A DNA stretch of 64,000 bases, from positions 1 through 64,000 of the forward strand of contig NZ_REFP01000009.1 in the NCBI RefSeq assembly GCF_003688725.1, read 5' to 3'. Position 1 is the stretch's first letter; the number at the start of each line of letters is the position of its first letter. This DNA is from Thermoactinomyces vulgaris (GTDB lineage: Bacteria > Bacillota > Bacilli > Thermoactinomycetales > Thermoactinomycetaceae). The notes under the pieces were generated by a model. It was not told the DNA's origin. It ran no database searches and saw nothing but the letters and a program-made list of their open reading frames with translations. Made by a program: the position numbers and the translations under genes. This document shows, one piece after another, positions 55,401-58,525 of the stretch.

Positions 55401-56069
55401 ATGCCATACCATATTTTGGTCATCGAGGACGACGCTGATATTCAGGAGCTGATTCGTGAATTTTTAACGGTTCAGGATTACTATGTCGATGTGGCCGGTG
55501 ACGGAAAAGAAGGAATCCAAAAATTTATGGAAACGAATCCGGACCTGTTGATTTTGGATGTCATGCTCCCGGAGATGAACGGATATCAGGTATTGAAAGC
55601 CATCCGCCGACAATCCGGTGTTCCCGTGATCATGCTGACGGCTTTGGATGAGGAAGCCGACCAACTGAAAGGATTTGAGCTGGGGGTGGATGATTACATC
55701 ACCAAACCGTTTTCTTTTCATATTTTGATCAAACGCGTCGAAGCCGTGCTGCGCAGAACCTATCAGACAGCAGAGTCAACGCGAAAATTAAAGTACCAGG
55801 AAATCACATTGGATTTGGACGGCTATAACGTTTATGTCGGCAAGCATCAAAAACACTTGACGACCAAGGAATTTGAAATTTTGCAAACCCTGATGAAACA
55901 CAAAGGGAAAGTGTGTTCAAGAGAGCTTTTGCTCAACAAAGTTTGGGGATTTGATTATTACGGAGATCCCCGGGTTGTCGACACCCATATCAAAAACTTG
56001 CGCAAAAAATTGGGGGTCCCCTACATACAGACGGTAAAAGGAGTGGGCTACAAGCTTGATACAGCATAA
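55401..56069 (+). CDS. OmpR/PhoB-family response regulator
   Basis: A 222-residue response regulator. Receiver domain 1-120 with acidic pocket EDDAD, phospho-acceptor D53 (LLILDVMLPEMNG), Thr in VIMLTA and Lys in YITKPF; C-terminal winged helix 130-222 (LTTKEFEILQTLMKHKG ... DPRVVDTHIKNLRKKLG). It controls unknown targets with the kinase encoded next, which overlaps its last 14 nt. GGAGGG precedes ATG. Confidence 0.95.
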   Translation: MPYHILVIEDDADIQELIREFLTVQDYYVDVAGDGKEGIQKFMETNPDLLILDVMLPEMNGYQVLKAIRRQSGVPVIMLTALDEEADQLKGFELGVDDYITKPFSFHILIKRVEAVLRRTYQTAESTRKLKYQEITLDLDGYNVYVGKHQKHLTTKEFEILQTLMKHKGKVCSRELLLNKVWGFDYYGDPRVVDTHIKNLRKKLGVPYIQTVKGVGYKLDTA

Positions 56070-57480
56070 AAAAAGCATTACCCTGAAAATTTTTTGGATC
56101 ACCAGCCTGCTGATCGCTCTGACCACCAGCATCCTGTTTGCTGCCTTTTATTTTTTGTTGCCTTCTTTTTATTATGAATACAAGATCAATAAATTAAACC
56201 ACGGCATCGACCAATTGTTGGCCGATGTTTCGGAGGTTCCCGTTTCCCAAGCACAAAACCTTTTATACGAATTCACCCATGACTACAACATCCATTTGCT
56301 GATCCGGGATCAACAGGGAAACATGATTTCGATTCCGTCTTCCTCTTCTCCTTTGGTTAAAATCCCGTACCGTAATAATTACGAAAAGGAAACAGATGGC
56401 ATCCCGCCGATCCGGATCATCGAAAAACCCATCTCCTTTCAGGACGGCCGGTTTATCGCCATTTTTGTCGCCACCTTGCAGCCTATCGATGAGGCTTCCA
56501 ATGCCATTTTGATGCTGATGCCGTACATGGGTTTTTTTGTCCTGTTGATCTCCATGGTTGGTGCATTTCTCTACACCAAACTGATCACCCAACCCCTGCT
56601 TAAAATTAATCAAGTGGCCAAGCGAATGGCCAAACTGGATTTCAGCCAGAGGTTGGAAAACCGGTCCGATGATGAAATCGGGGAATTGTCCCAGAGCCTG
56701 AATGAATTGTCGCAAAATCTCAAACAAACGATGTCCGAATTGCAACAAGCCAATGCGAAGTTAAAAAATGACATTCAACGCGAAAGGGAACAAGAAGCGA
56801 AGCGGAGGGAATGGATGGCGACCATTTCGCATGAATTGAAATCACCGATCACGGCCGTGATGGGGCAACTGGAAGGCATGATCCACCAAATCGGTGTGTA
56901 CAAAGACCGGGATAAATATTTGCGCCGATCCTATTCGATTATCAAAAACATGGAACAACTGGTAAAAGAAATCCTGGAAGTCTCCAAACTGGAATCGGAT
57001 GCATTTCATCCGCTGAAAAAAACCGTTTCTTTATCAGGCATGATTCAATCCGTCATCAAAAGGCTGGAATTTTTCCGCGAGGACAAACAAATCCGATTTG
57101 ACGTGAACATCGAGCCGGACCTGTTTGTCACAGCCGATCCCGGCTATCTGCAAAAAGCGGTGGCAAACATCATCCACAATGCCATCAACTATGCTCCTTC
57201 CGGCGAAACCGTCCGGATTTCCCTTGCACAAAAAAACTCCCATATCGAATTTCACGTACTGAATACGGGAGCCTCCATCCCGGAAGCCGAACTGCAAAAA
57301 GTCTTCGAACCCTTTTACCGTTTGGAAAAATCCCGAAACCGAAACACCGGGGGAAGCGGTTTGGGGCTTTATATCGTGAAACAGATTTTGGATATCCATT
57401 CGTTCCCTTACCAGCTGACCAATGAAGAAAACGGCGTTTTGTTTACGATTCATTTTCCTTTTCCTGAACAAAATGAATAA
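56056..57480 (+). CDS. Membrane sensor histidine kinase
   Basis: A 474-residue kinase: two membrane helices (about 12-38 and 150-175) around a ~110-residue extracellular sensor, HAMP linker (180-232), HisKA with H259 in MATISHELKSPITAVMGQL, and HATPase_c (AVANIIHNAINYAPSG N box, GGSGLGLYIV). TTG start overlapping the regulator gene points to coupled translation. Layout resembles Bacillus envelope-stress kinases; signal unknown. Confidence 0.93.
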   Translation: MIQHKKSITLKIFWITSLLIALTTSILFAAFYFLLPSFYYEYKINKLNHGIDQLLADVSEVPVSQAQNLLYEFTHDYNIHLLIRDQQGNMISIPSSSSPLVKIPYRNNYEKETDGIPPIRIIEKPISFQDGRFIAIFVATLQPIDEASNAILMLMPYMGFFVLLISMVGAFLYTKLITQPLLKINQVAKRMAKLDFSQRLENRSDDEIGELSQSLNELSQNLKQTMSELQQANAKLKNDIQREREQEAKRREWMATISHELKSPITAVMGQLEGMIHQIGVYKDRDKYLRRSYSIIKNMEQLVKEILEVSKLESDAFHPLKKTVSLSGMIQSVIKRLEFFREDKQIRFDVNIEPDLFVTADPGYLQKAVANIIHNAINYAPSGETVRISLAQKNSHIEFHVLNTGASIPEAELQKVFEPFYRLEKSRNRNTGGSGLGLYIVKQILDIHSFPYQLTNEENGVLFTIHFPFPEQNE

Positions 57481-57527: not shown

Positions 57528-57693
57528 CTGCCGGCAAAGTGAGACCGGTTCCACGGAAAAAAGCCGGATGATTACAACATCCTGTCAAACCAAAAACAGT
57601 TTCAAAAAAAGCTTTCAACCTTTGAATAAACCATCTTTTCCCTTGGTACAGATTTTTTAATGCATTTAAAACAGCTGATCCCGATGCCGGCCC

Positions 57694-57742
57694 ATCAACA
57701 TATCCACAACTTTATCCACATTATCCACAACATATAGTGCAA
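57694..57742 (+). repeat. DnaA-box array, copy 1
   Basis: Three DnaA boxes in the same direction: ATATCCACA (57700-57708, one mismatch), TTATCCACA (57712-57720) and TTATCCACA (57721-57729), the last two touching. The consensus is TTATNCACA. The 49-bp stretch is 44/49 identical without gaps to 58198-58246. It lies ~80 bp upstream of the promoter of the 53-codon gene. Confidence 0.85.
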
Positions 57743-57808
57743 TTTCGGAACAGCATGCTTTTCAACCCCAAAACAAGAACATACGTTCCTATTTCGCCGA
57801 ATATATGA

Positions 57809-57814
57809 TATAAT
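57809..57814 (+). promoter_or_regulatory. -10 element for the 53-codon gene
   Basis: TATAAT at 57809-57814, 36 nt before the ATG; the -35 at the right distance (TTCCTA, 57786-57791) is weak, so an activator or another sigma factor may be needed. Confidence 0.45.
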
Positions 57815-57849
57815 AATAAAACAAAACCACTTCCAAAGGAGCCGATGGA

Positions 57850-58011
57850 ATGCATAATCCATGGCTGATCTGGGCTGCCCGTATCATTGAAGAAACCCTT
57901 CCCTTGGTCCAAGAACAACTATCCCATAATCAAAGCGTGATCTTGAAAATGGAGAATATGTTTGAGGAATTAACCTTCAAAACTTCTTCTTCCAAAAACC
58001 ATCATTCATAA
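57850..58011 (+). CDS. Small protein (53 residues) between two DnaA-box arrays
   Basis: ATG 57850 to TAA 58009-58011, with AAAGGAG eight bases upstream. The peptide starts MHNPWLIWAARIIEETLPLV, continues as an amphipathic acidic helix (QEQLSHNQSVILKMENMFEE) and ends SSSKNHHS. Small DnaA-controlled genes are known (Sda in Bacillus also has DnaA boxes), but this sequence lacks the Sda signature and I do not recognise it. The flanking DnaA arrays, a -10 element and a terminator downstream make it a real gene in my view. Confidence 0.7.
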   Translation: MHNPWLIWAARIIEETLPLVQEQLSHNQSVILKMENMFEELTFKTSSSKNHHS

Positions 58012-58139
58012 TTATGCATGTGTCTTTTTTATGACCCTTTCCATAATAATATTTCGAATCAACCGATGATTCGTTATAATGAAAATGTAAGATTTCAACG
58101 GGATTGAATCACGGGAAAAAACCGATACCCTCCGGTGAG

Positions 58140-58168
58140 TCGCGCTAAAAAGCCGGCTCTTTTTTTTC
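58140..58168 (+). terminator. Terminator after the 53-codon gene
   Basis: AGTCG pairs with CGGCT around CGCTAAAAAGC, then CTTTTTTTT. Confidence 0.6.
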
Positions 58169-58197
58169 ATTCAGTATGTTGTATAAAAATAAAATTT

Positions 58198-58246
58198 ATC
58201 AACATATCCACAATTTTATCCACACTATCCACAACATCTTGTGCTA
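58198..58246 (+). repeat. DnaA-box array, copy 2
   Basis: Boxes ATATCCACA (58204-58212), TTATCCACA (58216-58224) and CTATCCACA (58225-58233), with the same spacing (12 and 9 nt) and direction as copy 1. Five mismatches in 49 bp separate the copies. A further box-like TTATCAACA overlaps at 58196-58204. Confidence 0.85.
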
Positions 58247-58264
58247 ATATAAATGTTAAGATTG

Positions 58265-58293
58265 ATAAAAAAAAGAGGAGGTTTCCCCCTCCC
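58265..58293 (-). terminator. Terminator of the 65-codon gene
   Basis: On the minus strand GGAGG-GGGAAA-CCTCC, then TCTTTTTTTT. Confidence 0.7.
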
Positions 58294-58327: not shown

Positions 58328-58525
58328 TCAAACTTCAACCTGAACTTCTTTCCAATTGCTTTTGTCCGTACTGATATAGAAGCGGCTGGCTTCATGTTTT
58401 TTGGGAAACAAGCGAATCAGAGATTTTATGTATTCGTTGGCGGATTCTTCGGTCTCAAATCCGGCGGGGTATTCATGCGTTTTGATTTCCCCGTTTTTTT
58501 CAGTTTCAATTTTTAAGTAGAACAT
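58328..58525 (-). CDS. Hypothetical small protein (65 residues)
   Basis: A 65-residue soluble protein: MFYLKIETEKNGEIKTHEY, then FETEESANEYIKSLIRLFP and a final strand RFYISTDKSNWKEVQVEV. It looks like a small alpha/beta fold. GGAGGG lies six bases before ATG and a terminator follows. I do not recognise a family. Between a DnaA-box array and tRNA-Ser. Confidence 0.75.
   Translation of the reverse strand: MFYLKIETEKNGEIKTHEYPAGFETEESANEYIKSLIRLFPKKHEASRFYISTDKSNWKEVQVEV

What the first reader, a model, noticed from the sequence alone, without database searches (positions are those of the whole stretch)
57694..58246. Two nearly identical triple DnaA-box arrays, 504 bp apart, flank a 53-codon gene
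Each 49-bp array has three same-direction DnaA boxes at 12- and 9-nt steps (two adjacent TTATCCACA in copy 1). The copies agree at 44 of 49 positions without gaps, which suggests duplication kept by selection. They sit in non-coding DNA close to origin-linked genes (serS, pdxST, dacA, guaB). Possible roles are DnaA titration, control of the small gene by DnaA as for Sda in Bacillus, or an accessory origin element.
Basis: partly seen in the sequence, partly recalled or inferred. Interest (0 to 1): 0.72.

Follow-up and report, generated by a model that had tools for sequence, protein, structure and literature searches.

The report
Paired DnaA-box arrays near oriC
Two short, nearly identical docking strips for the replication-starting protein DnaA sit about 16 kb from the replication origin of a Thermoactinomyces bacterium, are kept in a sister species, and most likely soak up DnaA to help time DNA replication rather than control the small gene between them.

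Summary
Two 49-bp arrays (44/49 identical) each hold three same-direction DnaA boxes at 12- and 9-nt steps, 504 bp apart and about 16.4 kb from oriC, in a Thermoactinomyces genome. Both copies recur in the only other species of the genus held, T. mirandus, 457 bp apart, although four-fold sites there match at only 43%. In the gap only the arrays and a 75-bp promoter-like block stand out as conserved; the 53-codon ORF is not. A 45-bp signature that reaches beyond the boxes recurs in three more genomes of the family, in other gene contexts where read. The abutting pair has the geometry of the family's oriC unwinding platform, without its DnaA-trios. No Sda was found in the family. Best reading: an oriC-proximal DnaA-box cluster of the Bacillus subtilis kind, acting as a DnaA sink and timing element. 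An accessory origin, a DARS-type element and an Sda-like switch for the ORF fit less well. DnaA binding is not shown here, and reviews differ on how much such clusters matter in B. subtilis. New parts: the duplicated unit, its central block, and a second family-wide cluster upstream of guaB.

The parts
57694..57742 (+). DnaA-box array 1: boxes 57700-57708, 57712-57720, 57721-57729 (3-bp gap, then 0-bp gap), flanked by ATCAAC and ACATATAGTG
58198..58246 (+). DnaA-box array 2: boxes 58204-58212, 58216-58224, 58225-58233; a one-mismatch box TTATCAACA at 58196-58204
58016..58090 (+). Conserved promoter-like block: inverted repeat CGAATCA-ACCGA-TGATTCG (58055-58073) directly before TATAAT (58075-58080); the 27-bp core differs at one position from T. 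mirandus and is found once in each of the two Thermoactinomyces genomes
   Evidence: that it is a promoter is inference (the scan does not list it)
58137..58167 (+). Terminator-like hairpin plus T-run that would end a transcript of about 85 nt started from the block; a stronger hairpin stands at the same place in T. mirandus (L106:6523-6556)
   Evidence: z -2.1 here, -5.4 in T. mirandus
57850..58011 (+). 53-codon ORF with AAAGGAG before its ATG; coding-like codon use; no relative found
58271..58293 (-). Terminator-like hairpin of the convergent 65-codon ORF; array 2 thus lies between two converging terminator-like hairpins
58328..58525 (-). 65-codon ORF, coding-like, no Pfam family above cut-off
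56056..57480 (+). Histidine kinase gene of an OmpR-type two-component pair; ends 214 bp before array 1 (176 bp in T. mirandus)

Best explanation
The two arrays are one oriC-proximal, extra-oriC DnaA-box cluster. Each array is a landing strip for about three DnaA molecules in head-to-tail order: boxes 1-2 form a 'double DnaA box' with a 3-bp gap, and boxes 2-3 abut exactly like the tandem pair that precedes the DnaA-trios in the family's oriCs. Because no trios follow, DnaA should load but not open the duplex, so the arrays act as decoy platforms. Lying about 16 kb from oriC, they are doubled soon after initiation and lower free DnaA, which helps to prevent early re-initiation. Shown by sequence: box content, spacing, conservation, linkage to oriC, lack of trios. 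Inferred: DnaA binding, titration, effect on timing. Unexplained: why two copies flank a conserved short transcription-like unit; bridging of the arrays by DnaA is possible but untested.
For: Both copies and their order are kept in T. mirandus (504 and 457 bp apart) while four-fold sites of five neighbouring genes match at 253 of 588 (43%); windows over the arrays reach 19-24 of 25 against a null maximum of 18 of 25 in 660 shuffled comparisons. The 45-bp signature, non-box flanks included, is in 5 of 42 genomes of the order; its neighbours differ: a histidine kinase gene in G000 and T. mirandus, thrC-like and HD-hydrolase-like ORFs in G003, a TetR-like ORF in G015 (names read from translations). 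In the window array 2 lies between converging terminator-like hairpins. The abutting pair equals that of 20 of 20 oriCs read, whose trio score is 10-15 of 15; beside eight arrays it is 5-9. Without oriC's twelve, 14 of 41 exact boxes still lie in the 171-kb stretch, 2.7 expected (stretch chosen post hoc). Literature: removing six extra-oriC clusters gives early initiation in B. subtilis, partly relieved by putting one back at various places (PMC5295017, passages; also PMC13220808, passages; both cite Okumura 2012, which is not held and which I did not read). E. coli DnaA prefers boxes 2-3 bp apart in vivo (PMC11317965, passages) and is titrated on the chromosome, with boxes enriched near oriC (PMC12371093, abstract and one results section).
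Against: No binding or replication data for this genus turned up (one literature search). The same review says that B. subtilis clusters with significant roles in initiation control have not been identified, in contrast to E. [quoted passage not shown] the other says that about tenfold DnaA overproduction does not cause over-initiation in B. subtilis. Placement is not general: beyond serS, 17 of 19 stretches of other genomes (1.8-20 kb; G000, T. mirandus and a second G015 stretch not counted) show no cluster, and the two that do (G022, G013) have another layout; related kinase/regulator genes in G003 and G002 have no cluster beside them. Titration does not explain the conserved block between the arrays.
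Confidence: 0.6

Rival explanations
1. The arrays are operator sites: DnaA bound to one or both controls the conserved promoter-like block between them, and so a short untranslated RNA: a replication-linked transcription switch.
For: Apart from the arrays, this block is the only stretch of the intergenic region above the null; its 27-bp core is unique in each of the two genomes and a terminator-like hairpin follows in both. DnaA acts as a transcription factor elsewhere.
Against: Neither array overlaps the block: array 1 ends 274 bp before it and array 2 starts 108 bp after it, behind the terminator. The block was not found (up to 3 mismatches) in G003, G016 and G015, which keep the array signature. 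The stretch that would be transcribed is poorly conserved.
Confidence: 0.17
2. DnaA controls the 53-codon gene, as it controls sda in B. subtilis, and the peptide is a checkpoint factor in a family without Sda.
For: Codon use of the ORF exceeds 99.7% of 765 non-coding frames (it is at the 12th percentile of 153 coding segments). It has a ribosome-binding site and a TATAAT upstream. No Sda was found in 23 of 23 genomes, while B. subtilis rings among 14 controls.
Against: No match in 60 other genomes, T. mirandus included, where both arrays persist. No Sda profile match. A model made without alignment is one long helix, whereas Sda is a helical hairpin (recalled).
Confidence: 0.06
3. Accessory or relic replication origin.
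For: The abutting box pair is that of the oriC unwinding region, and B. subtilis oriC is itself two box clusters on either side of a gene. A permissive trio rule (three NTN in a row) passes in 3 of 8 array tails (G000 copy 2, T. mirandus copy 1, G015).
Against: Trio score 6-9 of 15 at seven arrays of this type, where random tails peak at 6, against 10-15 at 20 of 20 oriCs; the permissive rule also passes in 15% of random tails. dnaA, dnaN and the gyrase genes stay at oriC (dnaN and gyrase named from translations).
Confidence: 0.05
4. DARS- or datA-like element that changes the nucleotide state of DnaA.
For: Three clustered boxes in about 50 bp near oriC; the essential datA boxes also share one direction.
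Against: In DARS box I faces opposite to II and III; here all three face the same way. The IHF homologue and the loci datA, DARS1 and DARS2 are stated to be absent in B. subtilis; IHF was not searched for here.
Confidence: 0.06
5. Neutral duplicate or mobile repeat without function.
For: The same 45-bp signature occurs in different gene contexts.
Against: Only one or two copies per genome, and conservation well above four-fold sites and shuffles.
Confidence: 0.06

Closest known systems
Extra-oriC DnaA-box clusters of Bacillus subtilis (Okumura et al. 2012, seen only through PMC5295017 and PMC13220808; regions 3-8 of Table 1 in PMC4447404)
   Same: Intergenic groups of DnaA boxes outside oriC in a spore-forming Bacillota; in B. 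subtilis they are the strongest in vitro DnaA regions after oriC.
   Different: None of the flanking genes named in that table adjoins the arrays; here two like three-box units flank a conserved promoter-like block. Binding not tested here.
Basal unwinding system (BUS) of oriC (PMC8287927, passages)
   Same: Tandem DnaA boxes in the same 0-bp-gap geometry as in this family's oriCs.
   Different: DnaA-trios lacking; one more box lies 3 bp upstream of the pair.
E. coli 'double DnaA box' (PMC11317965, passages)
   Same: Boxes 1 and 2 stand in tandem with a 3-bp gap, one of the two gaps preferred in vivo in E. coli.
   Different: A third box abuts; other organism.
E. coli datA and DARS1/2 (PMC5742627, passages)
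   Same: Non-coding box clusters outside oriC that tune initiation; essential datA boxes share direction.
   Different: DARS orientation not met; IHF or Fis dependence not tested.
DnaA-controlled sda of B. subtilis
   Same: A small ORF close to DnaA boxes.
   Different: The ORF is not Sda and not conserved; no Sda found in the family.

Membership tests
Extra-oriC DnaA-box cluster (B. subtilis kind) | Several consensus or near-consensus DnaA boxes within a few hundred bp, outside oriC | tested here: met
Extra-oriC DnaA-box cluster (B. subtilis kind) | Box content above chance and conserved | tested here: met
Extra-oriC DnaA-box cluster (B. subtilis kind) | Bound by DnaA | not testable with these tools
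   needs ChIP-seq or in vitro binding
Extra-oriC DnaA-box cluster (B. subtilis kind) | Deletion (with other clusters) advances initiation | not testable with these tools
   needs strains
oriC unwinding module (BUS) | Tandem DnaA boxes in oriC geometry | tested here: met
oriC unwinding module (BUS) | DnaA-trios next to the boxes | tested here: not met
   score 6-9 of 15 at seven arrays of this type and 5 at the 227.9-kb array, against 10-15 at 20 oriCs; the permissive NTN rule passes in 3 of 8 array tails and in 15% of random tails
DARS | Box I opposite to boxes II and III | tested here: not met
   all three boxes on the + strand; definition
datA | Essential boxes share one direction | tested here: met
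   definition
datA | IHF-binding site and IHF-dependent ATP hydrolysis | not tested
   no search for IHF genes or sites was made
sda-type DnaA-controlled gene | Encoded protein is Sda (PF08970) | tested here: not met
   no Sda match at E up to 1; 0 of 23 genomes
sda-type DnaA-controlled gene | Gene and boxes conserved together | tested here: not met

The most novel reading that the evidence does not exclude
The 57.6-58.3 kb unit is a dedicated replication-state sensor: DnaA bound to both arrays bridges them, enclosing a loop with a single, conserved, regulated promoter that makes a short untranslated RNA, so that the free DnaA level is both titrated and read out. It would stand in for Sda, which was not found in the family.
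Probability: 0.1. Interest if true: 0.75.

Novelty: new member of a known kind. Interest (0 to 1): 0.45.

Why it matters
How Bacillota that lack the E. coli regulators Hda, SeqA, datA and DARS (stated for B. subtilis) limit re-initiation is unsettled, and reviews disagree on the weight of extra-oriC clusters. These arrays are a compact, conserved, portable element whose layout (3-bp-gap pair fused to a trio-less oriC-type pair) makes a 'decoy platform' idea directly testable. The family also has a second, widely kept cluster upstream of guaB that may link initiator level to guanine nucleotide synthesis.

Tried and rejected
Rfam scan of 57.4-59.2 kb: only the tRNA passes its gathering score, so no family for the putative short RNA. 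Pfam: nothing above cut-off for the 53- and 65-codon ORFs. The inverted-repeat block was searched as a regulon operator: one place in each Thermoactinomyces genome, none in 21 other family genomes at up to 3 mismatches, so no regulon was recognised. A transporter-promoter role for the 227.9-kb array was considered: in G021 the transporter genes were not found between HU and csp, yet the array remains, so that is unlikely there. Folding 58083-58172 as RNA gave no excess stability (z -0.9) although the T. mirandus counterpart did (z -3.5), so no conserved RNA structure is claimed. A four-way comparison of the arrays was misframed by one base for T. mirandus and repeated. The density test uses a stretch chosen after seeing the boxes, and contig order is unknown. 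The null uses plain shuffles. The coding score was not held out from its training genes. In one search each oriC value is the best-scoring abutting pair of its stretch; the sequences agree with the dnaA-dnaN gaps printed. The guaB count has no shuffled control. The list was cut. The 53-codon ORF was folded alone; no fold search was run. A paper on tRNA read-through at datA was seen as abstract and outline only and not used as evidence.

Full report
WHAT WAS CHECKED. The reported arrays are present as described. Array 1 (57694-57742) and array 2 (58198-58246) agree at 44 of 49 positions and are not alike outside. Read as 6 + 9 + 3 + 9 + 9 + 13 nt, the 27 box positions differ at 1 and the other 22 at 4, so likeness extends beyond the boxes (counted by eye). 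All boxes point the same way. The organism is a Thermoactinomyces: serS is 83% identical to that of T. mirandus AMNI-1, and relative G001, listed as same genus, has a contig of the same length as the T. mirandus record (179942), so I treat G001 as that species.

POSITION. The window is part of contig C3 of a 2.56-Mb assembly in 15 contigs. dnaA matches at C3:74783-76132, with box-rich stretches on both sides. The exact box of the dnaA-dnaN unwinding pair (74668) is 16.4 kb from the last box of array 2. Exact TTATCCACA occurs 53 times genome-wide against 7 for the reversed pattern; TTATNCACA 104 against 40 (list cut). 26 of the 53 lie between 57.7 and 228.4 kb of C3: 24 in five groups (the reported pair 3, upstream of guaB 3, the two sides of dnaA 3 and 9, 227.9-228.4 kb 6) and two single ones. 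Without the twelve at oriC, 14 of 41 remain against 2.7 expected. The stretch was chosen after seeing the data, and the distance of other contigs from oriC is unknown.

CONSERVATION. The triple pattern (at most one mismatch) has 14 places in 9 of 23 family genomes, reversed control 0. T. mirandus has both copies, 457 bp apart, the first 176 bp after the same histidine kinase gene. Between the two species, 253 of 588 four-fold sites of five genes agree and the intergenic DNA mostly does not align. Windows above the null maximum (18 of 25) fall in three blocks: 57691-57740, 58016-58090 and 58181-58250. In-frame identities are 41/49 for copy 1 across species, 39/49 for copy 2, 44/49 for G000 copy 2 with T. 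mirandus copy 1, 39/49 for the other cross pair, and 38/49 between the T. mirandus copies. The copies are thus about as alike within as between genomes. Both copies stand in the same order after the same gene, and the copy-2 pair shares ATAAAATTT just upstream, which the copy-1 pair lacks, so the doubling most simply predates the split of the two species.

PORTABILITY. The signature TCAACATATCCACA-NNN-TTATCCACATTATCCACAAYATNTTGTG, at most 3 mismatches, occurs in 5 of 42 genomes of the order, reversed control 0: twice in G000, once in G001 (its copy 2 exceeds the limit), once each in G003, G016 and G015. In G003 it lies between a thrC-like and an HD-hydrolase-like ORF, in G015 beside a TetR-like ORF, 1.6 kb from asnB; these names come from reading the translations. 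G016 has the same array flanks as G003; its genes were not listed. This speaks for a function of the array rather than of one neighbouring promoter. A second layout, without those flanks, lies between an amino-acid ABC binding-protein gene and its permease gene near HU and csp (G000 227.9 kb). I read that locus in 9 genomes, each because a box match led there, so the count is biased; all 9 have at least two boxes there, G003 and G016 only the abutting pair with scattered boxes, and in G021 the array stands between HU and csp although the transporter genes were not found. Beyond serS, on the side away from dnaA, clusters appear in G000, T. mirandus, G022 and G013; the other 17 of 19 stretches read (1.8-20 kb) have none, and G022 and G013 have another layout. 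The kinase/regulator relatives in G003 and G002 (kinase 55-56% identical) have no cluster beside them.

ANATOMY AND MECHANISM. Boxes 1-2 have a 3-bp gap, one of the two gaps that E. coli DnaA prefers in vivo (PMC11317965, passages). Boxes 2-3 abut. An abutting pair precedes the DnaA-trios in 20 of 20 dnaA-dnaN regions read (G006, G007 and G022 not read for this), with trio scores 10-15 of 15. Beside seven arrays of this type the score is 6-9 and beside the 227.9-kb array 5; random tails peak at 6. Under the looser NTN rule three of eight tails pass (G000 copy 2, T. mirandus copy 1, G015) against 15% of random tails; I do not count that as trios. The simplest mechanism is a set of trio-less loading platforms that bind DnaA but do not open DNA: a sink that is doubled soon after initiation. 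In B. subtilis, removal of six such clusters gives early initiation, strong only when all are removed and partly relieved by one put back (PMC5295017, passage), and the strongest in vitro DnaA regions after oriC are such clusters (PMC4447404, one section). [quoted passage not shown] subtilis, and another that about tenfold DnaA overproduction does not cause over-initiation there (PMC13220808, passage). DnaA binding, titration and timing are inference here.

THE GAP BETWEEN THE ARRAYS. The 53-codon ORF looks coding (above all but 0.3% of 765 non-coding frames, at the 12th percentile of 153 coding segments) but has no match at E 0.01 in 60 other genomes, no Pfam family above cut-off and a single-helix model made without alignment. 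No Sda was found in 23 of 23 family genomes; 1 of 14 control genomes, B. subtilis, rings. What is conserved instead is 58016-58090: an inverted repeat before a TATAAT (TATGAT in T. mirandus), with the 27-bp core found once in each of the two Thermoactinomyces genomes and in none of the other 21 family genomes at up to 3 mismatches. Terminator-like hairpins follow in both species. A short untranslated transcript is the natural reading, but there are no RNA data, the promoter scan did not list it, and no Rfam family fits. Titration does not explain this block.

VERDICT. A known kind of element (extra-oriC DnaA-box cluster), new in this lineage as far as I searched, with two unusual traits: doubling around a conserved promoter-like block and a portable extended signature. 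The one literature search for the genus with DnaA gave one unrelated paper (listing only); a search on box clusters outside oriC gave 7 papers (listing only), none with this family in the title or the start of the abstract. I do not claim that nothing is published elsewhere.

Noticed in passing
G000 contig C3:65330-65385, just beyond the window end (L009:8330-8385): A DnaA-box cluster 100-150 nt upstream of the guaB start. At least two boxes (at most 1 mismatch) stand within 170 nt upstream of guaB in 21 of 21 family genomes where this was read (no shuffled control), which suggests DnaA control of guanine nucleotide synthesis or a widely kept DnaA sink. A site within E. coli guaB was described as DnaA-regulated but not seen by ChIP-seq.
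   Followed up: partly
G000 contig C3:227870-228411 (L010:7870-8411): A second strong DnaA-box cluster with a 12/9 array between an amino-acid ABC binding-protein gene and its permease gene; boxes stand there in the 9 genomes read (chosen by box matches), and in G021 without the transporter.
   Followed up: partly
G007:C1:417452-419120: 45 closely spaced DnaA-box pairs, many in a repeat of about 64 bp, directly beside dnaA (419306-420334): an extreme expansion at oriC.
   Followed up: no
family-wide: The sporulation checkpoint protein Sda (PF08970) was not found in any of 23 Thermoactinomycetaceae genomes.
   Followed up: no
window 58328-58525 (-): A 65-codon ORF with strong coding-like codon use, no Pfam family above cut-off, convergent on array 2 with a terminator-like hairpin.
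   Followed up: no
   Followed up: no
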